15,741 bases of DNA, taken from JACRDV01 sp024860865 [NCBI: Methanobacteriota archaeon]. GTDB lineage: Archaea > JACRDV01. Each line of letters opens with the position of its first letter. Within the stretch, counting starts at the first letter, position 1. The notes beneath the pieces were generated by a model that worked only from the letters and a program-made list of their open reading frames with translations, ran no database searches and had not been told where the DNA came from. A program made the position numbers and the translations under genes. Positions 1-12,069 of this stretch are shown one piece after another. The stretch is from NCBI GenBank assembly GCA_024860865.1, contig JACRDV010000049.1, forward strand, positions 1 to 15,741, read 5' to 3'.

Positions 1-900
1 AAGCATTCCAGCATTTGCATGAATAGTTATATTCGGTCTAAGAACATATTTAAAGAGCTGATCAATTGCCATTTCAGCTTCAATGCGATTGGTAACGATA
101 AGCGAACCTGGTTGACAAGCAACGCAACCTCGATAAATTTTTTCAGCTGAAATGCCAGTTATGTGCATTCCAACTCGATCGCCAACTTTTGCTTCAGCTC
201 GGCTTTCCTTAAAAGTCTGAATCGATTTAATTTTACATTCATTTCCAATGGGTTGAATTTGAATTTTGTCTCCTACTCTTATTTCACCGCGCAAAATCGT
301 TCCTGTGATGACAGTACCAATACCTTTAATTTCAAAAGCATGATCAATTGGCATTTTAAAAGGTCCTGCTTGCCTTACAGGAGGCTTAATTTGTTTATAA
401 AGAATTTCCTTAAGCTGAAGAATCCCTTCTCCAGTTTTTGCTGAAATAGGAACAATAGGGGCATTTTCAAAAATAGTTCCAATTAGAACTTTTTTTATTT
501 GAGAGCCGACCTTTTCGGTTTGATCTTTATTGACTAAATCGACCTTATTTAGAGCAACAACTAAATTTTTAATTCCAAAATAATTTAGAATTAAAATATG
601 CTCGCCAGTCTGGACCTCGGGACCTTTTTGTGCATCTATAACTAAGATTGCAGCATCAATAATATCTGCTCCTGCTACTACATTTCTAATTAGATCAGCA
701 TGGCCGGGAACATCGACTAATGTAACTATATACTCATTTAAAATAAAACTAGTGAAACCTAAGTCAATCGTTATCCCTCTGCGTTGAGCTTCCGGGTGTT
801 TATCTAAACCTGCAGTTGAGACTATTTCTGTCAATCGTCTTGCAACTTCAGTTTTACCGTGATCTATATGCCCAAAAAGACCAACATTGATAGATGTCAA
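1..900 (-). CDS. selB: Selenocysteine-specific elongation factor SelB, N-terminal 300 codons (partial)
   Basis: This is a translation GTPase that would deliver Sec-tRNA(Sec) to ribosomes at UGA codons. The minus-strand frame is open from 900 to the window edge, so the C-terminus lies outside. I translated it by hand. It shows G1 GHIDHGKT (residues 10-17), RGITIDLGF (41-49), G3 DVPGH (63-67) and G4 NKVD (118-121), then a beta-barrel domain II containing GTGTVITG-like text. The DLGF run after RGITI is typical of SelB rather than EF-1A or eIF2-gamma. The start is taken as the TTG at 898-900, giving a short N-terminus before INVGLFG as in archaeal SelB. An in-frame TGA lies eight codons further upstream, and no in-frame ATG or GTG exists in between. 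A GAGGTGA Shine-Dalgarno-like run sits 18 nt upstream, which is long. PSTK in the same window supports the assignment. A divergent SelB-like paralogue is the main alternative. Confidence 0.9.
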   Translation of the reverse strand, partial: MTSINVGLFGHIDHGKTEVARRLTEIVSTAGLDKHPEAQRRGITIDLGFTSFILNEYIVTLVDVPGHADLIRNVVAGADIIDAAILVIDAQKGPEVQTGEHILILNYFGIKNLVVALNKVDLVNKDQTEKVGSQIKKVLIGTIFENAPIVPISAKTGEGILQLKEILYKQIKPPVRQAGPFKMPIDHAFEIKGIGTVITGTILRGEIRVGDKIQIQPIGNECKIKSIQTFKESRAEAKVGDRVGMHITGISAEKIYRGCVACQPGSLIVTNRIEAEMAIDQLFKYVLRPNITIHANAGML

Positions 901-1241: not shown

Positions 1242-2855
1242 TTAACGCCGCCACAACATGTTAATTCGATTGCTAAAATGCTGACGCAATAGGTTAATTC
1301 GATTGCTTAAACCACGCTGTTTTTGCCTGTTTTTGTTATAAATCCTTTCAATAATTTTTTCTGGCGACTCTCTTAGGTATCCACGAAGCCCAAATCTAAT
1401 ACCGTGTGCTACAAATTTTAGCCCAGCTCTTGCTGCAATATTGATTTGATTCATTTTGGTGTACTCTTTAAGAAGACAGTCCACCCAATAAAGATCATGT
1501 TTAAAACAAACTTTTAGTAGTTCCACATGTTCAGGTAGCATCGCCTCTTTTGTAAACGACGATGCTCCATTAAGTCTAGAAGTATCTATCGGCACAAAAA
1601 GCAGCGGGACTATAAGGCTCTTATAAGGCTTTAAAGATTCGATCAATTCAACAGTCTTTATTACATCATTACTAGTTTCTCCAGGTAATCCTAAGATTAA
1701 AGTTGCGGCTGGCACCCAATGATTATCATGTAACAAAGCAAAGGCCTCTTCAACCACTTTAGGCCAGTCTTCAACGTTAAATGGAAGGACTTTCCCAGGC
1801 ATATATTTTTCAATAAGTGCAGGGCTACCGGTTTCTACTCCAGTTTGAACGCCTATCCACAATCTATCCTTTGATCCTAAATTCATTAATTCAGATAGTT
1901 GAACTAAAAGTTTAAAGTTAGAACATACCGAGGCAAGAGCGATATGGCTGACCGAGATATCAGTTACTCCTGGGAAATTTAGAATTGAGCTAAATAAATC
2001 TAAAACTGCTTCAGAGTTAGCTTTAAGCCCTCTAGCTTGATAACGCAGTATATCTTCTGAATGAAGCAAAATTTTGCAACTTTTTCCTTTTTCTACATTT
2101 ACTTTTACTTCTCTGAGTATTCTCTCCCTAGGCAAACTTCTAAATTTTAACAATGTTGGGCTACAAAACCGGCAGTCACGGCCACACCCTCTTGAAATCT
2201 CAATAAACCCGTCTACAGCAGGATTCCTTATCACTGGAATTTCATCAACTTCAGCTACATCTCCATATACTAAACCCGGAAGTGGTTCATTACCAATTGC
2301 TTTTTTAAAAAGAGGGCCAACAACCTTTTCGCCCTCTCCAATCACAACAGTATCTATCCCTAATTGCTTTCGAATAGATTCGGACTCAAGTTGCCAAGCC
2401 CCTGGTCCACCGACAATTATTTTTGGTCGAAAGCGACGTATTGCTGGATGATTTAAAAGCTCTTTAAATTTAAAGGCCATCTGCGTTTCTCCGCCAAATA
2501 TATTTGTAAAGGTAGAACTGGCCGGACCTATTCCAAGGGGATCCATCTCTGAAATTCCAACGACTTTAGTATCGCTTCCAACTGCCTCATGCAAGCGCTC
2601 TGGATGGGTTACAACCAACTCTTCTTCCTTAAAACCGTAATCTAACAGCGCAGCTTCAATTTTGCGCAAACTATAAGGGGCTAGCAAAGGTTTACCATCC
2701 TTTTCAGGAACTGAAGGACAAAATATCCAATAATAAAGCCAGTCTGGGATGTGCCCTCTCGGAAAGCATGCGCTAAACCCTAAAAAAATACCGCCTCGAT
2801 AGGTGCTCATTAAGGTACGATCTGCAGTTAGTACGATTTTGTAACCGCTATTCAT
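1242..2855 (-). CDS. Radical SAM protein with N-terminal B12-binding-type region
   Basis: The protein is 537 residues. Residues about 1-215 look like the Rossmann-type cobalamin-binding-like region of the B12-binding radical SAM superfamily (PKIIVGGPGAWQ, then DTVVIGEGE). The radical SAM core follows, with the [4Fe-4S] motif CGRDCRFC (CxxxCxxC, C224, C228, C231) and a GVETGSP-like strand characteristic of this superfamily. The substrate is unknown to me. The start is the ATG at 2853-2855, which has a strong GGAGGTG Shine-Dalgarno six bases upstream. The GTG at 2862-2864 lies inside that element and is unlikely to be the start. The last 22 residues are two near-identical 11-residue units (SNRINLL.., SNRINML..). 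The gene stands alone on its strand between the ABC remnant and an AT-rich non-coding stretch. The motif assignment is confident; the function is not known. Confidence 0.85.
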   Translation of the reverse strand: MNSGYKIVLTADRTLMSTYRGGIFLGFSACFPRGHIPDWLYYWIFCPSVPEKDGKPLLAPYSLRKIEAALLDYGFKEEELVVTHPERLHEAVGSDTKVVGISEMDPLGIGPASSTFTNIFGGETQMAFKFKELLNHPAIRRFRPKIIVGGPGAWQLESESIRKQLGIDTVVIGEGEKVVGPLFKKAIGNEPLPGLVYGDVAEVDEIPVIRNPAVDGFIEISRGCGRDCRFCSPTLLKFRSLPRERILREVKVNVEKGKSCKILLHSEDILRYQARGLKANSEAVLDLFSSILNFPGVTDISVSHIALASVCSNFKLLVQLSELMNLGSKDRLWIGVQTGVETGSPALIEKYMPGKVLPFNVEDWPKVVEEAFALLHDNHWVPAATLILGLPGETSNDVIKTVELIESLKPYKSLIVPLLFVPIDTSRLNGASSFTKEAMLPEHVELLKVCFKHDLYWVDCLLKEYTKMNQINIAARAGLKFVAHGIRFGLRGYLRESPEKIIERIYNKNRQKQRGLSNRINLLRQHFSNRINMLWRR

Positions 2856-2861
2856 ATCCAG

Positions 2862-2868
2862 CACCTCC
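2862..2868 (-). promoter_or_regulatory. Shine-Dalgarno GGAGGTG that sets the start of the radical SAM gene
   Basis: On the minus strand GGAGGTG lies six bases before the ATG at 2855. It also contains a GTG in the same frame, which would otherwise give a start three codons longer. Optimal spacing favours the ATG. Confidence 0.75.
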
Positions 2869-2901
2869 TAGCAGGCTAGTTTTATTAGATTGAATGATTT
2901 A

Positions 2902-2949
2902 ATAAACAAAGCTAAAAACTAAAATTTTTTACTTATTTGTTTTGTTTAT
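2902..2949. repeat. Perfect 9-bp inverted repeat in an AT-rich gap
   Basis: ATAAACAAA (2902-2910) and TTTGTTTAT (2941-2949) are exact inverted copies with a 30-base spacer. They lie in the gene-free stretch from 2869 to 3265, which is otherwise strongly AT-rich; I see no other gene in it. The repeat could be a regulatory site or weak hairpin upstream of the radical SAM gene. In DNA this AT-rich, a chance match is quite possible. Confidence 0.3.
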
Positions 2950-3265
2950 ATTTAAAAATTACTAAATTATAAATTATTAAAATAAATTACAACTGTATTG
3001 CTTCAGAAAATTTTGATATTGCCGAATAAAAAAAACACATCTCCAAGAGAAGGAATGGATCGCAAAAAAATATCCCAATTGTTTTCGATTCCAACTTGCT
3101 AAAACTAAGAGGGGAAATCAGTAATATTACTTAAAGCCATCGAAAAAAAGAGATTTTGTTAGCCAAATTTCCTACTCTACAATTTTTTTGTTTGTAAGCA
3201 ATGCAGAAAATTATTATAGCCCCTCAAGTAGCACAAATATCAACGATAGTAAGAGAAATTCTAAA

Positions 3266-3588
3266 ATGAAAGAGATATTAAAAGAGATATTGAAAGCTTA
3301 TAAAAAGCGTGTTTTATTTACTGTACACGCATTAAATCAAATGAACTTAATTGAAAGAATGATATCAAAAGATGAAGTCTATGAGGTTATTGAAAAAGGG
3401 GAAGTGATAGAAGATTATCCAGATGATCCGAGAGGCCATAGTTGTTTATTAGGAGGAAAAACTAAAAATGAAAGATGGGTTCATGTATTATTGCCCCAAA
3501 GGATGAATACCTAGCAATAATTACCGCATATTTACCGGACCCAGAGGAATGGGAAGTAGATATGAAAACAAGGAGGAGGAAAAAATGA
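3266..3588 (+). pseudogene. DUF4258 toxin-like protein, interrupted by a -1 frameshift
   Basis: From the ATG at 3266 the frame encodes a lysine-rich helix, then FTVHALNQM and a VYEVIEKGEVIEDYP stretch typical of DUF4258 proteins, then PRGHSCLLGG. After WVHV (about 3476-3487) the frame runs into a TAG at 3512-3514. In the -1 frame the expected end of the domain continues at once from 3487: IIAPKDEYLAIITAYLPDP, then EEW and a basic tail, with TGA at 3586-3588 overlapping the next gene's ATG. The family's usual ending therefore exists but in the wrong frame, so one base appears to have been lost near 3485-3493. DUF4258 genes often precede YgiT-type zinc-finger genes in toxin-antitoxin-like pairs. 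A sequencing error or true inactivation would explain this equally well. No obvious ribosome-slippage heptamer is present. An upstream in-frame TTG at 3188 is a less likely start. Confidence 0.7.
3571..3579 (+). promoter_or_regulatory. Shine-Dalgarno AGGAGGAGG before the YgiT-type gene
   Basis: AGGAGGAGG ends five bases before the ATG at 3585. This fixes the zinc-finger gene start there rather than at the earlier in-frame ATG at 3549, which lies inside the preceding coding region. Confidence 0.75.
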
Positions 3589-3803
3589 AATGCCATTATT
3601 GTGGAGGAAAAATGGCCAAAGGAAAGACGACTTATAGCATAAATAAGAAAGGATATCACTTGCTTGTAGACGATATCCCAGCCTGGATTTGCTCCCAATG
3701 TAAGGAGATATACTTTGAAGGAGATGCTGTAGATATAATTCAGAATGTTATTAAAAATATAGATGTAGGAGTAGCAAAATTAAAAGAGGAAATAACAGCT
3801 TAA
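3585..3803 (+). CDS. YgiT-type (MqsA N-domain-like) zinc-finger protein
   Basis: A 72-residue protein with two CxxC pairs, CHYC at C3/C6 and CSQC at C36/C39. This is the four-cysteine zinc site of YgiT/MqsA-type antitoxins. A hydrophobic strand (YHLLVDDIPAWIC) leads into the second pair, and an amphipathic helix ends the protein. The usual MqsA C-terminal helix-turn-helix is absent, as in many short YgiT-type proteins paired with DUF4258. The ATG overlaps the TGA of the upstream toxin-like reading frame as ATGA, and a strong AGGAGGAGG lies five bases upstream. From this context I infer that it is the antitoxin or partner of the DUF4258 protein. With the partner frameshifted it may be an orphan. 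Confidence 0.8.
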   Translation: MKCHYCGGKMAKGKTTYSINKKGYHLLVDDIPAWICSQCKEIYFEGDAVDIIQNVIKNIDVGVAKLKEEITA

Positions 3804-4204
3804 TGTCAAAATCTTTAATTACCCGCCGTGGAGAAGATGTAGTTGGTATGAAAAAAGATTGAATTGATTGTGGCCTATTTAGCTTCAATCTGCTTTAAAA
3901 TGGCTGATTTAGTCCTTCAATTTTTTTCATTTTTCTTCTAATGGCGCAGCCAATGTTTTGTTTATTGTAATCCTTTAGTAAGGCTTATTACCTGCCATTC
4001 CAATGTCAAATTGTTTAGTGCACCACTAAATTAGTCGCTCCCACTATAAATGGGGTGACCTACTAACTTTCCTTGTACTTTATATTACAATAAAAAATAA
4101 ATAATTTTCAAATTTTCAAAATTCTTGTAAGTGCCTACAAAAATCGAAGCCTTATAGCCTGCAGGTTGCAAATTTCTAAAATATTGCTTTATTGTTAATT
4201 AATT
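3804..4204. other. Non-coding stretch with several inverted repeats
   Basis: No convincing gene is seen on either strand across 400 bases. Two inverted repeats stand out. ATGAAAAAAGATTGAA (3848-3863) and TTCAATTTTTTTCAT (3916-3930) match apart from a one-base indel. TTTAGTG-CAC-CACTAAA (4014-4030) is a perfect 7-bp hairpin with a 3-nt loop. A short ATG frame from 3803 gives only 19 codons before TGA. The region separates the YgiT-type gene from the convergent methyltransferase gene. Confidence 0.5.
4014..4030. repeat. Perfect 7-bp hairpin with 3-nt loop
   Basis: TTTAGTG (4014-4020), loop CAC, CACTAAA (4024-4030). A possible G-T pair extends the stem by one. No T-run follows on either strand, so a terminator role is not clearly supported. 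It may be an operator-like palindrome or a chance feature. Confidence 0.35.
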
Positions 4205-4942
4205 CTAGATTTTTTTCTGATGGTGTTTCCTACATTTTAAAACTAAGCTTGCACCTAAAAATGGCGGGTGGACTTTATTTTCAAGGTGTTTAAAATAAAA
4301 TAAAAGTGATTTATTTAACCACGAGTTTGCAATGTCCTTTTGAGAGTAATTCTTATGCAGCAACCCGACTTTAATTCCCATTAAAACTAAAGCTCCTACA
4401 CTATTCCAGTATCTCACCATCTGAATTAAAAAACCAGCTTTTATTAGTTTGTTTATTATTTCCTTTTTAGTGTATCGACGCTCATGTCCCACTAGATCAT
4501 CATGTTCCGTCCATAGCCTAGGTAATGCAGGCACAGTCACTATCAAAACTCCATCACTTTTTAATGCCCGATAGGATTCGCTGAGTACAAAGTTATCATC
4601 TTTAGTATGTTCAAGCACATCTGAGAGTATAATACAATCAAAAGGTGTAAAAAAATTCCACGGTCTTTCAGCATCTAAATTCACAAAATTGATTTCATTA
4701 GATCCTCCATTATTTAACAACGAATTGCTAATATCCATAACATCTGCAGCTGTTACTTTGCATCCTTTTTTTGCAAGAGCTACCGCTAAAGAGCCGGTAC
4801 CGCATCCCATATCTAGCACAGTCTTTCCTTCAATTAGGCTGAGAATTAATTCTTGTTTGGCTGATATCCAAAAGTAACTGAGATTTTCTAACTCTTGCAG
4901 TTCTTTAAGAGTTGTTAAGTTTTCTTTTAAAATACTCTCCAT
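4205..4942 (-). CDS. Class I SAM-dependent methyltransferase
   Basis: A 245-residue protein of the UbiG/Methyltransf_11-like fold. Motif I VLDMGCGTG lies at residues 42-50, an acidic strand-2 end follows (VTAADVMD), then the strand-4 motif with LSDVLEH and a post-motif SDGVLIVTVP strand. The C-terminal third contains GHERRY, seen in many archaeal and bacterial methyltransferases of lipid or glycan gene clusters, and a short hydrophobic stretch (about 180-195). The substrate cannot be deduced. The start is the ATG at 4940-4942. A TATA-like element centred about 28 bases upstream suggests a leaderless transcript. It is divergent from ccmA across about 275 bp, and no functional link to the ccm genes is evident. 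Confidence 0.85.
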   Translation of the reverse strand: MESILKENLTTLKELQELENLSYFWISAKQELILSLIEGKTVLDMGCGTGSLAVALAKKGCKVTAADVMDISNSLLNNGGSNEINFVNLDAERPWNFFTPFDCIILSDVLEHTKDDNFVLSESYRALKSDGVLIVTVPALPRLWTEHDDLVGHERRYTKKEIINKLIKAGFLIQMVRYWNSVGALVLMGIKVGLLHKNYSQKDIANSWLNKSLLFYFKHLENKVHPPFLGASLVLKCRKHHQKKI

Positions 4943-4964
4943 GAAATATTGTAAAAATTACAGA

Positions 4965-4976
4965 CAATATAAATTT
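4965..4976 (-). promoter_or_regulatory. TATA-box-like element for the methyltransferase gene
   Basis: On the minus strand the sequence reads AAATTTATATTG, centred about 28 bases upstream of the ATG at 4942. That is the spacing expected if transcription starts at or near the start codon of a leaderless archaeal mRNA. No Shine-Dalgarno is present before this gene, which fits. Confidence 0.4.
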
Positions 4977-5084
4977 TTTGGGTTAAAACTAGCAAAGTAT
5001 AAAATCAAGAGAAAATTTCCTAAAAACTCACTCTAAAGACCTCTTATTCAATATTCCATAAAAATTACCAATATCTCTCGAATG

Positions 5085-5129
5085 TCGGAACATAGTTTCT
5101 ATAAACTTCGGGATGAGTTATTGTTCCGA
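5085..5129 (+). promoter_or_regulatory. Composite inverted repeat in the ccmA upstream region
   Basis: An exact outer repeat, TCGGAACA (5085-5092) and TGTTCCGA (5122-5129), encloses an inner stem AGTTT (5094-5098), loop CTAT and AAACT (5103-5107). A one-base 5' gap and a 14-base 3' gap form an asymmetric internal loop. It lies about 90 bases before the ccmA start in the divergent methyltransferase/ccmA region. It could be an operator or a structured RNA. I know of no named family it belongs to. Confidence 0.35.
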
Positions 5130-5218
5130 AAAGCATATACTAACAAAAGAAATAGAAAACTCAAATAAGTAAAATTTTTTGGTTAATAAAAGTCGAAACA
5201 AATCATTGAGGGCACCGT

Positions 5219-5965
5219 TTGCGAAAACATAATATTACGCTTGAAGTGAGCAACTTAACCAAGAAATATAATGATTTTATAGCCATCGATCATGTGAATT
5301 TTACGGTTTTTAATGGCGAATTTTTAGGTTTATTAGGTCCCAACGGTGCTGGAAAAACCACATTGGTAAAGATCATTTCAGCAGCAATCAAACCATCAGA
5401 AGGCATAATCACAATTAACGGTCATAAAATCCATGAAGAACCTGGAGAAGTTAAAAAATCAATAGGTGTTGTGTCTCATAATTCTTATTTATATGAAGAA
5501 CTAACTGCTTATGAAAATCTCGAATTCTTTGGCAAAATTTACGGCATCCCAAGCAAAGAATTGGATGAGCACATTAAATGGGCTCTCGAAAGTGTAAACT
5601 TGCAACATCGCTCTCATGATGCAGTATCTACTTTTTCCCGCGGAATGAAACAAAGGTTATCAATTGCAAGAGCAATGATACATCATCCTAAACTGTTAAT
5701 TCTCGATGAACCTACTGTTGGTTTAGATCTTCAGAGCAAAAACATATTTTATGATTTAATCAAAGAAATCAACAAATCTGGGAGCACTATCTTTCTAACC
5801 ACCCACTATATACTTGAAGCCGAAACTCTTTGTGATAGAATAATTATCCTCTCAAGGGGAAAAGTTGTACTTGAAGGTAAAGTCACTTCTATTAAAGAGC
5901 AATATCCCAATATGACATTTGAAGACATATATCTTGAAGTTACAAAATCAGGAGCAAAGCTGTAG
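5219..5965 (+). CDS. ccmA: Heme exporter ATPase CcmA
   Basis: A 248-residue ABC ATPase. It has Walker A GPNGAGKTT (40-48), signature FSRGMKQRLSIARA, Walker B LLILDEPTVGLD and H-loop LTTHY. The fold alone would fit many ABC-2 exporters. The call as CcmA rests on the directly following ccmB, ccmC, ccmD, ccmE and ccmF. In System I, CcmA hydrolyses ATP to release heme-loaded CcmE from the CcmABCD complex. It is longer than the bacterial protein of about 205 residues, having a C-terminal extension. The start is the TTG at 5219, with GAGGG six bases upstream. The next gene begins immediately after the TAG stop. Confidence 0.88.
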   Translation: MRKHNITLEVSNLTKKYNDFIAIDHVNFTVFNGEFLGLLGPNGAGKTTLVKIISAAIKPSEGIITINGHKIHEEPGEVKKSIGVVSHNSYLYEELTAYENLEFFGKIYGIPSKELDEHIKWALESVNLQHRSHDAVSTFSRGMKQRLSIARAMIHHPKLLILDEPTVGLDLQSKNIFYDLIKEINKSGSTIFLTTHYILEAETLCDRIIILSRGKVVLEGKVTSIKEQYPNMTFEDIYLEVTKSGAKL

Positions 5966-6640
5966 TTGATAAATGAAATTTTAATCGTTGCATCAAAAGA
6001 TTTACGAGTGGAATTTAGATCTAAAAGCACAATCAATTCAATGGTATTATTTGCGATGATAACCATCATAATATTTAGCTTTGGTTTGGGTCCATTTCCA
6101 CCTTATATTGGAGAAGTAGGCCCAGGTTTATTATGGTTAGTGTTTCTATTTACAGGCATGTTAGGATTTGCTAGAACATTTGTTCATGAAAAAGAAATGG
6201 GAACATTTGAAGGGCTTAAAATCTCCCCCTTAAGCACTCTTTCAATTCTCATTGGAAAAGCTATCTTTAATTTTACATTAATGTTGATAGTAGAAATTTT
6301 AGCATTCCCGCTCTTTCTTGTAATGACCGGTTATAATGTAAAAGGAAGCTTAGTATTAGCATTTTTTTTAATTGTACTCGGCACTATAGGTTTTGTTATC
6401 ATCGGGTCTATGATGTCTGCGCTTATAATCAACGCTAGAACTCGAGAAATGCTTCTACCAATTATTACATTTCCGTTGGCAGTTCCACTAGTTATTGCTG
6501 CAACACTATCGCTCAAAAAAGTTTTAGCAGATGGTTCAGGCTTTAGTGAAGTTTTTGTAGAAGTTGAGTTTATGTTTATATACATTGTGATAATGAGTAT
6601 AGTATCTATGCTAACGTTTGATTACGCTGTTGAAGAGTGA
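5966..6640 (+). CDS. ccmB: Heme exporter permease CcmB
   Basis: A 224-residue membrane protein with about six hydrophobic helices, the size of CcmB. It carries the family's cytoplasmic motif EKEMGTFEGLKISPLS after the second helix, followed by GKAIFNF. It partners CcmA and CcmC in the complex that handles heme-loaded CcmE. The start is a TTG directly abutting the ccmA stop, with GGAG twelve bases upstream. The nearby ATG at 5973 is out of frame. The TGA stop overlaps the ccmC start as GTGA, indicating translational coupling. Confidence 0.88.
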   Translation: MINEILIVASKDLRVEFRSKSTINSMVLFAMITIIIFSFGLGPFPPYIGEVGPGLLWLVFLFTGMLGFARTFVHEKEMGTFEGLKISPLSTLSILIGKAIFNFTLMLIVEILAFPLFLVMTGYNVKGSLVLAFFLIVLGTIGFVIIGSMMSALIINARTREMLLPIITFPLAVPLVIAATLSLKKVLADGSGFSEVFVEVEFMFIYIVIMSIVSMLTFDYAVEE

Positions 6641-7374
6641 TTTCTGCAAGAACAATGGGTGATATAGTGAAACTCGAAAGAAAATATGCGTTCCTACTAC
6701 TTTGCGCTTTGTATGTAATAATTCTAATTGGCATGTATGAAGCACTAATAGTTTTAGGGCCACTTAGCCCAGAATCCTTGAGGTGGATAGGAGACCCAAT
6801 GGAGCAAGGTTACAGGATATTTTTTTTCTCAATGCCAAATGCTGCTGTGGTTTATCTTGCATTTTTTGTTATACTAATAGCTAGCATAATGTATCTAAGA
6901 GATAGACAAATTAGGTGGGATTTAATAGCATCGGGCTCTGCCAAACTCGGTTTAGTGTTTTGCACAATTCTCTTAATCACAGGGTCAATATTTTCTAACC
7001 TAGCATGGGGTGCATATTGGAACTGGGATCCTCAACAAACAGCGGCACTTGTGCTTTGGTTTATACTCGCTGGCTACCTTTCTTTACGCTCAGCTATTGA
7101 AGACGACGAGGCGAGAGCAAGACTTTCAGCCATATTTGGCATATTTGGATTTTTAGGTGTTCCCTTAAGCTATGTTTCTGCGGTGATTTGGTCATCTATC
7201 CATCCACGATTTGCGACTGGTTTCAGCTTAGATCCCTTAGGTAAATTAGTTACAATAATCATAGTACTTGGCCTTCTCATACTTTTTGCTTACTTACTTT
7301 GGCTCGAAGTTAGCGCCAAAAAACTAGAAAAGGAGTACCAAAGGCTACTGTCTAAAGCTAAGAGAGAGGAGTAA
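6637..7374 (+). CDS. ccmC: Heme handling protein CcmC (WWD family)
   Basis: A 245-residue protein with six predicted membrane helices and the tryptophan-rich WWD motif WGAYWNWDP (124-132). CcmC loads heme onto CcmE at the outer face of the membrane. The second conserved heme-ligand histidine fits H189 (SSIHPRF). At the place of the first (HVPxAW in bacterial CcmC) this protein reads FFFSMPNAA, with serine at 65. The missing ligand is unusual. The GTG at 6637 overlaps the ccmB stop; an ATG at 6655 is an alternative start. A 90-base gap separates it from ccmD. Confidence 0.88.
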   Translation: MISARTMGDIVKLERKYAFLLLCALYVIILIGMYEALIVLGPLSPESLRWIGDPMEQGYRIFFFSMPNAAVVYLAFFVILIASIMYLRDRQIRWDLIASGSAKLGLVFCTILLITGSIFSNLAWGAYWNWDPQQTAALVLWFILAGYLSLRSAIEDDEARARLSAIFGIFGFLGVPLSYVSAVIWSSIHPRFATGFSLDPLGKLVTIIIVLGLLILFAYLLWLEVSAKKLEKEYQRLLSKAKREE

Positions 7375-7432
7375 GTATTTGTTAAGTTAGAATATAACAA
7401 TTTTCACGATAAAAAACGAATTTTGGAAAAGT

Positions 7433-7441
7433 TATTTAAAT
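7433..7441 (+). promoter_or_regulatory. Possible internal promoter (BRE/TATA) for ccmDEF
   Basis: GAAAAG followed by TTATTTAAAT (about 7426-7441) resembles an archaeal BRE plus TATA box. It is centred about 28 bases before the ccmD ATG at 7465, the spacing of a leaderless start. It lies in the only sizeable gap (90 bp) within the ccm cluster, so ccmDEF may have its own promoter. Confidence 0.4.
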
Positions 7442-7464
7442 CATATAAAAAATAATAGTTTTCT

Positions 7465-7602
7465 ATGCCTGAGTTTGAGAGCATTCTAGCAGTAGCAATA
7501 ATACTGTGGTCTGGTTTAATATTATATGCGATATATTTGGACTCAAGAGTTAGAGATTTGGCCAAAAAAATATCGAATTTGGAAAAAATGTTTGAGAAAT
7601 GA
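7465..7602 (+). CDS. ccmD: Small membrane protein CcmD
   Basis: A 45-residue protein with one hydrophobic helix (about residues 6-23: ILAVAIILWSGLILYAIY) and a charged, coiled-coil-like C-terminal tail rich in K, E and R. Size, topology and position between ccmC and ccmE match CcmD, the small subunit needed to release holo-CcmE from the CcmABC complex. Sequence conservation in CcmD is weak, so the name depends on context. The stop codon overlaps the ccmE start as ATGA. Confidence 0.75.
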   Translation: MPEFESILAVAIILWSGLILYAIYLDSRVRDLAKKISNLEKMFEK

Positions 7603-8021
7603 AGTCAGTGACAATTATGGTTAAGATGAGTAAAAACTTAAAAATTGGAATTGGTATTTTGTTAATTGCAGTGTGCATTGCAATTGGATATAGCACTGTC
7701 TTCAAATTTTTTAATCCATACCATTTTGTCAGCAACTTAACTGCAAATCCAGATCAATATATGAACAAACAAGTGCAAGTAATAGGGGTTGTAGTTCCGG
7801 GCACTATTGAACTGGCTTCTGGTACCTTGAAATTTGATATCACAGATGGTAACTCAAGAATAAAAGTTGCATATGGCGGATCTCCTGTTCCAATAAGAGA
7901 GAGTATAAATGTTGTTGTTATTGGATCACTTATATCCCCAACTCAATTTCAAGCTACAAAAATTCTAACCCAATGTCCATCAAAGTATGAACAAACATTA
8001 AGCGCTGCTAATAAGACTTAA
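7599..8021 (+). CDS. ccmE: Heme chaperone CcmE, CxxxY type
   Basis: A 140-residue protein with an N-terminal signal anchor (about 14-32) and an OB-fold domain (VQVIGVVVPGT.., FDITDGNSRIKVAYGGSPVP). The heme-binding segment is near the C-terminus and reads TQCPSKYE (C126, Y130). Classical CcmE binds heme covalently through His in HxxxY. The Cys-for-His form, CxxxY, belongs to the variant System I* known from archaea and some Deltaproteobacteria, and this protein has that form. It carries heme from CcmC to CcmF outside the cytoplasm. The ATG overlaps the ccmD stop; later methionines at residues 7 and 10 are possible starts. Confidence 0.92.
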   Translation: MKSVTIMVKMSKNLKIGIGILLIAVCIAIGYSTVFKFFNPYHFVSNLTANPDQYMNKQVQVIGVVVPGTIELASGTLKFDITDGNSRIKVAYGGSPVPIRESINVVVIGSLISPTQFQATKILTQCPSKYEQTLSAANKT

Positions 8022-8067
8022 ACAGGCAACCACATGCTACTTTTTTAAATTTTAGGATTTGATAAGA

Positions 8068-10044
8068 ATGACATTAGGGTCTATACTATTAATAATAAGC
8101 TGGCTTGCTGGTTTTGCATCGTTAGCTTTGCTATTTCTGCTAGATTTGCGTTTTAATGAATACTTGAAAGATAAAACAATAAATTATATGATTGAAAGTT
8201 TAAAAAATAAATATACAATTTCAATTCGCGCATACACTTTGTTATTAACATCATGTTCTATTCTTCTTTTCAACGCATTTTTATACTCAGATTTTTCACT
8301 TGCGTATGTATTTGAATACAGCAGCTCAGAACTTTTATGGTTTTATAAAATTTCAGCATTCTGGGCAGGAACATCTGGCTCTCTTTTATTATGGGCATGG
8401 TTGATTTCTCTATTCATTTGGTGGTGGAGTGAAAAAGTAGACTTTAATTCCCAATTTGTTAGAAGAACTACAATTTTTTCAATAATAATTGGATTATTTT
8501 TCTTAACAATAACGCTGGTTGATTCGCCCTTTAGATCAATCACAGGCTCGGTCCTAGAAAATCTCTGGCGTGCCGGAGTTGATGGGATGGGGCTAAACCC
8601 TTTGCTTCGTGACCCCTGGATGGTTATTCACCCTCCAATTTTATTCGTTGGATATGCTGCGATAACGCTACCTGCTGCTGCGGCTATTGCGTATCTAATT
8701 AATCCCGATGAAAGTTGGGAAAAACTTACGCGGCAATGGTCTAGAATTGCTTGGATATTCTTGATGGCTGGCATTGCTATTGGCGGATTTTGGTCGTATA
8801 AGGTATTAGGGTGGGGTGGATTCTGGGCCTGGGATCCAGTTGAAACTACTTCATTCATCCCATGGCTTACGATGACGGCATTTTTACACGGAACGGTTCA
8901 ATACCGCAAGAATAGAAAGTTTAATTTCATAACTCCGCTTTTAGGAATCGTATCACTTCTATTAGTTGTATATGCTACGTTTGTTACTAGAAGTGGAATT
9001 CATGAATCCTTCCATTCTTTTGGCGAAAGTGCTACATCACCATTTTTCTTGATATTTATAGCAGCTGTAATTATTGCAACAATAGCGTCTGCTATCCGAT
9101 TTATAAGCAAACAAATAAAATTGACTGGCGAAGAAAGTATTTCGCTACTCTCTAAACAAAATTTAATTTTACTTACAATTATCGCATTTGTTATGTTAAC
9201 ATTCATATCTTTATGGGGAACAACCTATCCAGTAATTTATGAGATCTTAACAGGCATGAAAATTTCAATTGAAAAATCATTTTTTAACTTTTGGAGCCTT
9301 CCATTCACTATTATATTGTTTTTAACTATGTGGGCATGCATGTTATTTGGTTTCCTTAAAGAAGGTCTATTAGTAAAAACTTTAATGTTGTTAATTGCGG
9401 CCACAGTAGGTTCTATACTTATCAAACCTACTGAAAATTTCTATGCTAATGCCTTGTTACCCTCAGCATTTCTAGTAATTGGCGGGGTTATATTTGGGCT
9501 ATTAAAAATTATTAAAACTCCAAGAAGTTTTGCTAGATCTATTAAATTAATCTCTCCTTATGTGATTCATTTAGGAGTTGCATTTATAATAATTGGTATT
9601 GTGGTGAGCACGGCATTTCAAAAAGAGATTTTTGAGAAATTTAACATCGGCGAAAATAAAGAAATCGGTCGAGAATACGGTCTGAGTGTAACTAATATTA
9701 GCGCGTATGTTAATTGGCAAGATTTTACTTGGGCACAAAAAACTGATTTATTTTTAAATAAAAACGGTGTTAGAGTTGGAGAAGGTAACCCATTAATCTA
9801 TTATAATTTAAGACCAATGCTGTGGGGGGGCGAGTCAGAGGGTCCCTTCGCAAAAGTATACATCCATCGCACTCTGCTCTTCGATATTTACGTAGCTTTC
9901 GAAGGTGTAGGCTCAGAAGAGGAAATTGAACAAGGTATCCCGTTGAGAATTAAAATGTTTCCACTAGTTAATTTTCTATGGTTTGGGGTCATACTTGTAT
10001 CATTAGGTGGAGCGCTGTTGATAATTTCAGAGCCAAAAAAGTAA
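8068..10044 (+). CDS. ccmF: Cytochrome c heme lyase subunit CcmF
   Basis: A protein of about 658 residues with many membrane helices. The WWD motif is WGGFWAWDP, followed by VETTSFIPWL. It has histidines in the expected places: MVIHPPILF, FLHGTVQ, the GIHESFHSF loop, and IHLGVAF near the C-terminal helices. CcmF takes heme from CcmE and attaches it to apocytochrome c. In System I* it appears to act without CcmH. The start is taken at the ATG at 8068, with AGGA about ten bases upstream; the in-frame TTG at 8059 directly follows that element. No ccmG or ccmH follows: downstream is a 160-bp gap, then a convergent heme-synthesis gene. Confidence 0.92.
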   Translation: MTLGSILLIISWLAGFASLALLFLLDLRFNEYLKDKTINYMIESLKNKYTISIRAYTLLLTSCSILLFNAFLYSDFSLAYVFEYSSSELLWFYKISAFWAGTSGSLLLWAWLISLFIWWWSEKVDFNSQFVRRTTIFSIIIGLFFLTITLVDSPFRSITGSVLENLWRAGVDGMGLNPLLRDPWMVIHPPILFVGYAAITLPAAAAIAYLINPDESWEKLTRQWSRIAWIFLMAGIAIGGFWSYKVLGWGGFWAWDPVETTSFIPWLTMTAFLHGTVQYRKNRKFNFITPLLGIVSLLLVVYATFVTRSGIHESFHSFGESATSPFFLIFIAAVIIATIASAIRFISKQIKLTGEESISLLSKQNLILLTIIAFVMLTFISLWGTTYPVIYEILTGMKISIEKSFFNFWSLPFTIILFLTMWACMLFGFLKEGLLVKTLMLLIAATVGSILIKPTENFYANALLPSAFLVIGGVIFGLLKIIKTPRSFARSIKLISPYVIHLGVAFIIIGIVVSTAFQKEIFEKFNIGENKEIGREYGLSVTNISAYVNWQDFTWAQKTDLFLNKNGVRVGEGNPLIYYNLRPMLWGGESEGPFAKVYIHRTLLFDIYVAFEGVGSEEEIEQGIPLRIKMFPLVNFLWFGVILVSLGGALLIISEPKK

Positions 10045-11262: not shown

Positions 11263-12069
11263 TTAAAAAACCTTATGATGTTCTTTTAATAATTTTTTAG
11301 CTTTACCTACAAATAATGTTTTAGCTTGTTCTATTTTCATTGTCTTAGATAATGCGGTTTGTATAATTTCTCTCCTTAGTTTGCTCAACTTTTGACCTAA
11401 TTCTTTCGATTTGTATTTTTTCATCAATTCACTCATGACTCTTCTAGTCATAACATCAATCTTCTCAGCACGAGTTATTTTTGGTCTCAGTTTTCTCTTT
11501 TTGATTTCACAAACTTTTTCGCCTTTTTCCCTTTTGAATAGCTCAACAAAAGCTGAAGCAATTAAGGTTCCTGCTTTTCCCGGATCAGTTGAACCCGAAT
11601 CAATAATAAGATTAGGTCTATCCCATCTATATTTGCCAGGTATGTCAAATTTACGAGAAATATCGCTAATTACTTCAGGCGGAATTGGTTCGCCTCTTTG
11701 TTTGTTTCTTTTAAGAGCAATTTCAGTTGAACATTGAATGAAGACAATTTTATAGGGAACTCTCAATTTTTGAGCGATTCTGATCAAATCACGCCTCATG
11801 GTCGTGTAATAATTAGTATCATCGCAGATTGCGACATACCCTGCTTTTAATGCGAGCTTTATGAGTTCTTTCATAGTATTGCGGATAAATGGTTCGTGGA
11901 TGGGATTGAATTTTTCAGTATCAGCTGGTATCATCTCTCTTATATTGTCTGTTCCAACAACTAAGGCCGGCATTTTATGCTGTAGCTCTAACTTTTTGGC
12001 AGCTGAATAGGCTATCTCACTTTTGCCTGCCCCCGGAATTCCGCAAAAGATAATAAGCAATGTGCTCAC
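11263..12069 (-). CDS. pstK: L-seryl-tRNA(Sec) kinase (PSTK)
   Basis: A 268-residue P-loop kinase. It phosphorylates Ser-tRNA(Sec) to Sep-tRNA(Sec), the substrate of SepSecS, in the archaeal and eukaryotic route to selenocysteine. It has Walker A GIPGAGKS (10-17), GTDNIRE (39-45), EPFIR (59-63), DDTNYYTTMRRD (83-94), RNKQRG (121-126) and FDIPGKYRWD (141-150). From memory these follow the order of the methanococcal PSTK. A helical, lysine-rich C-terminal domain (KIDVMTRRVMSELMKK) corresponds to its tRNA-binding part. The main alternative is a KTI12-like kinase, but the C-terminal domain and SelB in the same window argue for PSTK. The start is the GTG at 12067-12069, 13 bases after the coiled-coil gene. 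Confidence 0.88.
   Translation of the reverse strand: MSTLLIIFCGIPGAGKSEIAYSAAKKLELQHKMPALVVGTDNIREMIPADTEKFNPIHEPFIRNTMKELIKLALKAGYVAICDDTNYYTTMRRDLIRIAQKLRVPYKIVFIQCSTEIALKRNKQRGEPIPPEVISDISRKFDIPGKYRWDRPNLIIDSGSTDPGKAGTLIASAFVELFKREKGEKVCEIKKRKLRPKITRAEKIDVMTRRVMSELMKKYKSKELGQKLSKLRREIIQTALSKTMKIEQAKTLFVGKAKKLLKEHHKVF

What the first reader, a model, noticed from the sequence alone, without database searches (positions are those of the whole stretch)
11263..12069. PSTK in the same window as SelB: likely selenocysteine-decoding archaeon
PSTK is needed only for selenocysteine synthesis on tRNA(Sec), and SelB only for its insertion. Few archaeal groups have the trait (Methanococcales, Methanopyrus, Lokiarchaeota-related). 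Here PSTK sits among heme and mevalonate genes, and SelB starts about 10 kb away, so genes in this genome may be mis-annotated at in-frame UGA codons.
Basis: partly seen in the sequence, partly recalled or inferred. Interest (0 to 1): 0.75.

Follow-up and report, generated by a model that had tools for sequence, protein, structure and literature searches.

The report
Selenocysteine-using archaeon with intron-split selenocysteine tRNA
The window comes from an archaeon, of a group that could not be named here, that very probably reads the stop codon UGA as the rare amino acid selenocysteine; its selenocysteine tRNA gene appears to be interrupted by two small introns that hide it from standard gene finders.

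Summary
The ORF at 11263-12069 (-) is a PSTK; the ORF at 1-900 (-) is an archaeal SelB cut by the contig end, 10.4 kb away on the same strand. The rest of the genome supports selenocysteine (Sec) decoding. selD has an in-frame UGA at the known Sec site (HGUACKV). Three hdrA and three flpD (vhuD-like) genes carry nine more UGAs, all at Cys positions. Beside selD lies a tRNA-Sec gene (UCA, 9/4 fold, 7-bp D-stem, G73, CCA) interrupted by 13-nt and 17-nt bulge-helix-bulge-like introns; it scores only 35.5 bits and the whole-genome search missed it. Eukaryote-like SECIS candidates end three of four selenoprotein transcripts. SepSecS was not found; in the two Jordarchaeia loci checked it follows selB directly, and this contig breaks inside selB, so an assembly gap is likely. 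An RNA-polymerase tree puts the genome outside the Asgard, Methanococci and Methanopyrus-type genomes included; its phylum holds no second genome here and could not be named.

The parts
11263..12069 (-). [quoted passage not shown]
   Evidence: TIGR03574 195.6 bits; PDB PSTK 3a4l E 7.9e-39; P-loop, DDTNYY motif and C-terminal region align with PSTKs of other Sec-decoding archaea; cut-off control
1..900 (-). aSelB, Sec-specific elongation factor, N-terminal 300 aa; the gene is cut by the start of contig C153
   Evidence: TIGR00475 297.9 bits, over cut-off; 4ac9 E 3.1e-91; 60-61% identity to Jordarchaeia SelB; intact GHIDHGKT, RGITIDLGF and DVPGH motifs

Best explanation
The window belongs to an archaeon that decodes UGA as selenocysteine by the archaeal/eukaryotic route. 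Inferred working: SerRS charges tRNA-Sec with serine after both introns are spliced out by the archaeal tRNA splicing endonuclease. PSTK (this window) phosphorylates it to Sep-tRNA(Sec). SepSecS, probably encoded just beyond the contig break behind selB, converts Sep to Sec with selenophosphate made by SelD, itself a selenoprotein. [quoted passage not shown] The products are HdrA- and FlpD-type electron-transfer proteins. Shown by sequence: PSTK, SelB, SelD with UGA, tRNA-Sec, UGAs at Cys positions, SECIS-like hairpins. Inferred: splicing, SepSecS, SECIS function, actual Sec insertion.
For: PSTK and aSelB. SelD: PRK14105 381.4 bits over 291, single UGA at residue 16 in QMVALHGUACKVRER, with AGGAGG before the GTG start. 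tRNA-Sec at L003/L068:1402-1519 (-): with the 13-nt and 17-nt inserts taken out, the 88-nt RNA folds into the full 9/4 cloverleaf, is followed by G and CCA, and its anticodon loop CUUCAGA and T arm GGGGUUCGAUUCCCC equal those of Methanocaldococcus tRNA-Sec. Over 14 aligned archaeal tRNA-Secs, 89.5% of cells pair, with 123 double changes (0 of 500 shuffles reach either). Both inserts fit bulge-helix-bulge drawings, and the T-loop one recurs at the same place in a Freyarchaeota tRNA-Sec. Selenoproteins: 9 UGAs in 3 hdrA and 3 flpD genes, each aligned with Cys in a paralogue from the same genome. SECIS-like hairpins at 3 of 4 selenoprotein transcript ends against 1 of 57 other ORF ends (limits stated in the full report). 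One genome: tetranucleotide correlation among the window and seven other own contigs 0.79-0.90, to five other archaea 0.10-0.69.
Against: SepSecS was found neither by TIGR03531 nor by an alignment of 8 archaeal SepSecS; both PF05889 and that alignment hit only a SepCysS. The PSTK is under the curated TIGR03574 cut-off. tRNA-Sec is under the Rfam gathering score (35.5 against 47), and the whole-genome search did not list it. Taken alone, the anticodon-loop insert folds slightly better in another way than in the bulge-helix-bulge drawing (-8.4 against -7.0 kcal/mol). No SECIS-like hairpin was found for the C132 hdrA-flpD transcript.
Confidence: 0.93

Rival explanations
1. The Sec-synthase step is done without SepSecS: SepCysS, which this genome has, acts on Sep-tRNA(Sec) and makes Cys-tRNA(Sec) or, with a selenium donor, Sec-tRNA(Sec), so that UGA is read as Cys or as a Cys/Sec mixture.
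For: SepSecS was not found in the assembly, while SepCysS is present (PRK09331 337.7 bits over 301; TIGR02539 294.2, under its 365.25, the gene being cut). Passages report that SepCysS accepts Sep-tRNA(Sec) in vivo and that selenite raised activity in one E. coli strain with a bacterial SepCysS. A passage says bacterial SelB cannot fully tell sulfur from selenium.
Against: 22 of 25 genomes searched have SepSecS over cut-off; of the 24 others only 2 lack it. In the two Jordarchaeia loci checked SepSecS starts 13 and 37 nt after selB, and this contig ends inside selB; the selB C-terminal part is missing from the assembly as well. selD would hardly be kept for a Cys-only readout (inference).
Confidence: 0.05
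2. [quoted passage not shown]
For: PSTK is under its cut-off and matches the Pfam KTI12 model. SelB-like factors occur in many archaea without Sec (passages).
Against: tRNA-Sec, SelD and 7 genes with UGA at Cys/Sec sites are present. aSelBLs often have a degraded G domain, whereas the window SelB has intact G motifs. The cut-off and KTI12 arguments fail on other archaeal PSTKs.
Confidence: 0.02
3. The Sec genes are contamination from a Jordarchaeia-like Asgard archaeon in the bin.
For: SelB is 60-61% identical to Jordarchaeia SelB, and the tRNA-Sec T-loop intron site is shared with a Freyarchaeota genome.
Against: The five contigs with Sec features match the rpo contig in tetranucleotides (0.82-0.89) and differ from Freyarchaeota (0.51-0.62). 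The PSTK tree does not put the window inside Jordarchaeia. Seven other window proteins have no match in the Jordarchaeia loci held at that time. Listed contamination is 0.73%.
Confidence: 0.03

Closest known systems
Sec-decoding system of Jordarchaeia/Freyarchaeia (Asgard)
   Same: PSTK (up to 42% identity), SelB (60-61%), PSTK and selB on one strand a few kb apart, tRNA-Sec with a T-loop intron at the same site in the one Freyarchaeota gene found, eukaryote-like SECIS in print for the group
   Different: RNA-polymerase tree places this genome outside the Asgard genomes included; genes between PSTK and selB differ; second tRNA intron is in the anticodon loop rather than the D arm
Sec-decoding system of Methanococcales and Methanopyrus
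   Same: PSTK, aSelB and Sec-SelD; HdrA and VhuD as selenoproteins in print; anticodon loop CUUCAGA and, in Methanocaldococcus, the same T arm of tRNA-Sec
   Different: the tRNA-Secs of those groups in the alignment are intronless; SECIS candidates here were found with the eukaryote-like model; the euryarchaeal GAA_A model was not run as a scan; a cytochrome c gene set, unlike those groups (from general knowledge)
Lokiarchaeota tRNA-Sec with a T-arm intron
   Same: intron in the T arm (passage in PMC5330540)
   Different: two introns here; the Lokiarchaeota sequence was not seen here
AK8/W8A-19 group archaea (Sec plus SepRS-SepCysS)
   Same: Sec system together with SepCysS outside Asgard and methanogens (passages in PMC5424206)
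   Different: their SPS is split into two fragments, here it is one ORF; whether this genome is related to that group could not be tested
aSelBL family (SelB-like factors of archaea without Sec)
   Same: homologous, shares the acyl pocket (passages)
   Different: G domain intact here; the C-terminal domain cannot be judged because the gene is cut

Membership tests
PSTK | reaches the curated score of TIGR03574 (290.5 bits) | tested here: not met
   195.6 bits; 7 of 8 PSTKs from other archaea also fail
PSTK | closest solved structures are PSTK, over N- and C-terminal parts | tested here: met
   3a4l and 3adb, query residues 4-252 and 4-247
PSTK | falls among PSTKs of Sec-decoding archaea in a tree | tested here: met
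aSelB (against aSelBL) | intact GTPase motifs (G1, RGITI, DxPGH) | tested here: met
   GHIDHGKT, RGITIDLGF, DVPGH line up with five other SelBs; criterion from passages of PMC3037878
aSelB (against aSelBL) | C-terminal SECIS-related domain | tested here: inconclusive
   gene cut at codon 300 by the contig end; the C-terminal part was not found elsewhere in the assembly
archaeal tRNA-Sec | UCA anticodon, 9/4 fold, 7-bp D-stem with 4-nt loop, long variable arm, G73 | tested here: met
   (one U-U mismatch in the D-stem); depends on removing two predicted introns
archaeal tRNA-Sec | Rfam RF01852 gathering score (47 bits) | tested here: not met
   35.5 bits on the unspliced gene
Sec-decoding trait | at least three Sec-system genes including tRNA-Sec and at least one known selenoprotein (rule used in PMC11227280) | tested here: met
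   PSTK, SelB, SelD, tRNA-Sec; 7 UGA-bearing genes; rule in a passage
Sec-decoding trait, archaeal route | SepSecS present | tested here: inconclusive
   not found in a 92.45% complete assembly whose contig breaks inside selB
eukaryote-like SECIS (Asgard model) | AUGA or GUGA ... GA/AA core, 7-15 bp stem, 8-20 nt loop near the 3' end of a selenoprotein gene | tested here: met
   3 of 4 selenoprotein transcripts, 1 of 57 other ORF ends; function not testable here

The most novel reading that the evidence does not exclude
The eukaryote-like SECIS (AUGA..GA core with an A-rich apical loop), reported as complete structures in Asgard archaea and eukaryotes in the passages seen, and tRNA-Sec genes with a T-loop intron at 59/60 both occur in a deep archaeal phylum that is neither Asgard nor methanogen. 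That would mean the eukaryotic style of Sec insertion is older than the Asgard lineage, or moved between phyla together with the Sec genes.
Probability: 0.35. Interest if true: 0.75.

Novelty: new member of a known kind. Interest (0 to 1): 0.58.

Why it matters
Sec decoding in archaea is reported in print for a short list of lineages, and the origin of the eukaryotic system is argued mainly from Asgard genomes. A Sec system in another phylum, with eukaryote-like SECIS candidates and a tRNA-Sec intron site shared with a Freyarchaeota genome, bears directly on that argument. It also shows a possible blind spot: one survey of GTDB archaea used Secmarker with a score threshold of 40 (passage in PMC9723677). 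Here the unspliced gene scores 35.5 with the Rfam model (a different model), and the five Jordarchaeia/Freyarchaeota genomes searched gave no hit over the Rfam cut-off, so intron-bearing tRNA-Secs may be undercounted. Seven redox genes of this genome are likely to be cut short by standard annotation.

Tried and rejected
RF01852 on the whole own genome listed only two hits, which ARAGORN calls tRNA-Ser. The tRNA-Sec was found only by cmscan of the selD locus, and the multi-genome search missed it again. ARAGORN without introns also missed it.

SelD-like hits L004-L008 are weaker, without UGA, and were not followed beyond that table.

The PF05889 hit is SepCysS, not SepSecS.

The Rfam hit RAGATH-12 over the selD 3' end (22 bits against 75) is taken as chance.

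I read it as a tRNA-Asp(GUC)-like gene with a D-arm insert, because Rfam finds an ordinary tRNA core there and the acceptor is 7 bp; this reading is by eye and was not tested. The same ARAGORN setting gave nothing on L068, where the tRNA-Sec lies.

A phylum-wide survey was not possible: the phylum holds one genome here.

SECIS scans: a strict scan (perfect stem, GA suffix) found selD and gave 2 of 296 background windows of 400 bases, the background containing selD itself. A scan with a loop pattern was post hoc, since the pattern came from the hits: 4 hits in 186,208 bases of the own genome (both strands) against 6 in 1,547,260 shuffled bases; 3 of the 4 lie at selenoprotein ends. Its control list had 58 rows, of which selD itself was one, leaving 57; these are mechanical stop-to-stop ORFs of at least 150 codons and include the ends of Sec-type hdrA genes. 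The one control that reached the range is the end of an FdhD-like ORF at L093:890 (-), score 18.

Full report
What was claimed and what is there. The finding names a PSTK at 11263-12069 and a SelB about 10 kb away. Both are present. The ORF at 11263-12069 (-) is best described by TIGR03574, L-seryl-tRNA(Sec) kinase (E 9.5e-58), and its best solved relatives are PSTK structures. It lies under the curated TIGR03574 cut-off, but 7 of 8 PSTKs taken from the 48 loci do so too, and the Pfam KTI12 match is shared by the 4 archaeal PSTKs tested. The ORF at 1-900 (-) passes TIGR00475, is closest to archaeal SelB in the PDB (50.8% identity) and is 60-61% identical to Jordarchaeia SelB. Its GTPase motifs are intact, unlike the divergent SelB-like aSelBL proteins of archaea without Sec (passages of PMC3037878). 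It is cut at codon 300 by the start of contig C153.

The rest of the Sec machinery. The window's assembly has 1,544,231 bases in 160 contigs and is 92.45% complete. SelD is on contig C124 with one in-frame UGA, in QMVALHGUACKVRER, over two curated cut-offs, with AGGAGG before its GTG start. About 220 bases beyond the end of selD, on the other strand, cmscan finds a tRNA-Sec at 1402-1519 (-), 35.5 bits against a gathering score of 47. Its low score goes with two inserts. Removing 13 nt after position 37 and 17 nt after position 59 leaves an 88-nt RNA that folds into the full cloverleaf with 9-bp acceptor and 4-bp T stem, followed by G and CCA. Both inserts can be drawn as 3-nt bulge, 4-bp helix, 3-nt bulge; the drawn structures have energies of -7.0 and -8.4 kcal/mol, against minima of -8.4 and -8.7 for the same stretches, so for the anticodon insert another fold is favoured on its own. 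Over 14 archaeal tRNA-Secs (own and 13 others) 89.5% of cells pair and 123 cells change on both sides; 0 of 500 shuffles reach either. The variable arm is the weak part (52.4% of cells paired); its length differs between rows.

Selenoproteins. FlpD-domain hits in the own genome number 8, of which 3 contain UGA. Each of the three lies beside an hdrA with UGA. The sites are: HdrA in C132, C68 and C147 at the last Cys of FPTxxCxxC; a second site in the C147 HdrA at a CxCG motif; FlpD in C132, C68 and C147 at FACxKUGYAA; a second FlpD site in C68 and C147 at the first Cys of a CxxGxC stretch. With SelD that makes 7 genes and 10 UGA codons inside the conserved region of the protein, every hdrA/flpD one aligned with a Cys in a paralogue of the same genome. 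UGAs printed before the start or at the natural end of an ORF were not counted.

SECIS. The published Asgard model (passages of PMC11227280), narrowed to AUGA or GUGA and used without any loop rule, was applied to the last 30 and next 110 bases of ORFs, with pair weights of my own; limits and weights were set after the hits had been seen. selD scores 20, C68 flpD 21.5 (its UGA stop is part of the AUGA core), C147 flpD 16.5 with two mismatches and overlapping the end of the coding region; C132 flpD gave none, nor did the end of the hdrA-flpD gene behind it. Of 57 other ORF ends, 1 reaches this range (an FdhD-like ORF, 18). The three loops share A-rich starts and a CC...GG core, noticed after the fact. 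These are candidates; nothing here shows that they work.

The missing SepSecS. TIGR03531 and an alignment of 8 archaeal SepSecS find no SepSecS; what PF05889 and the alignment hit is a SepCysS on C74. I gave 21 of the 48 loci plus G000, G009, G022 and G053: 22 of 25 genomes have SepSecS over cut-off (G053 and G078 show identical coordinates and are probably one genome); G000, G066 and G071 do not. In the two Jordarchaeia loci checked SepSecS starts 37 nt (L022) and 13 nt (L081) after selB. Contig C153 ends inside selB and the rest of selB was not found elsewhere in the assembly (one chance-level hit, E 0.06). An assembly gap is therefore the simplest account; a SepCysS-based route stays possible.

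Which organism. The phylum has no second genome in the search set, and no name could be obtained; membership of a lineage already in print for Sec, such as the AK8/W8A-19 group, is therefore not excluded, although that group's SPS is described as split and here it is one ORF. An RpoA1 tree of 20 genomes groups it with unnamed G001 and G002 (SH-aLRT 94), next to but outside the group holding Thor-, Frey- and Jordarchaeota (98), and apart from the Methanococci and Methanopyrus-type rows; an earlier 26-row tree agrees on G001 and G002. It is a single-gene tree with a midpoint root. G001 and G002 show only weak hits to the PSTK model and no tRNA-Sec over cut-off. Tetranucleotides tie the window and seven other own contigs together (0.79-0.90) against 0.10-0.69 for five other archaea.

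Kinship of the Sec genes. SelB is closest to Jordarchaeia (60-61%, against 44.5-52% for Thorarchaeota and relatives). A Freyarchaeota genome carries a tRNA-Sec with a T-loop insert at the same site with the same flanking letters, plus a D-loop insert. None of the five Jordarchaeia/Freyarchaeota genomes gave a tRNA-Sec over cut-off, while 13 of the 21 genomes searched did. The PSTK tree does not nest the window in Jordarchaeia. Common ancestry and transfer cannot be told apart here.

Print. Passages seen: PMC13188914, PMC5330540, PMC9499178, PMC8450103, PMC11227280, PMC5424206, PMC8762117, PMC3037878, PMC11291895, PMC11459464, PMC9723677. They place archaeal Sec use in Methanococcales, Methanopyrales, Asgard groups, the AK8/W8A-19 group, Bathyarchaeota and one Archaeoglobi species. 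A T-arm intron is reported for Lokiarchaeota tRNA-Sec and pervasive tRNA introns for Freyarchaeia. In these passages and in the listings of six searches I saw no archaeal tRNA-Sec described as having two introns and no complete eukaryote-like SECIS reported in archaea outside Asgard; supplements were not seen, and most subscription papers are not in the library.

Noticed in passing
L068 (G000:C124) 2416-6294 (+): hdrC, hdrB, a GcvH-like lipoate-binding protein gene and two radical-SAM-like genes in a row beside the selD/tRNA-Sec locus, resembling sulfur-oxidation-type Hdr clusters (names and resemblance by eye, not tested).
   Followed up: no
L091 (G000:C147) 230-333 (-): tRNA gene with a D-arm insert near a 5S rRNA gene (727-847 -); ARAGORN calls it tRNA-SeC(tca), but it reads better as tRNA-Asp(GUC). 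Suggests that odd tRNA introns may be common in this genome.
   Followed up: partly
G000:C100:7956-12044 (L118, L121, L150): RpoA1 is interrupted by about 1.5 kb in frame at model position 450; G007 has an insert at the same place. Probably an intein, not tested.
   Followed up: no
L092 (G000:C68) 3780 (-): A weak SECIS-like hairpin with the same loop type lies about 110 bases upstream of a Sec-type hdrA.
   Followed up: no
window 5219-10044 (+); L093 (G000:C67) 1784-3064 (-): CcmA, B, C, E and F-like cytochrome c maturation genes in the window and a CxxCH-rich multiheme-like protein elsewhere: this archaeon probably makes c-type cytochromes.
   Followed up: no
L069 (G000:C74) 7899-8894 (-): SepCysS (tRNA-dependent cysteine synthesis) coexists with the Sec system; the gene is cut by the contig end.
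   Followed up: partly
window 3188-3803 (+): Two small ORFs (108 and 84 aa) that look like a toxin-antitoxin-type pair (a DUF4258-like and a CxxC MqsA-like N-terminal protein); names recalled, and the first had no NCBIfam match.
   Followed up: no
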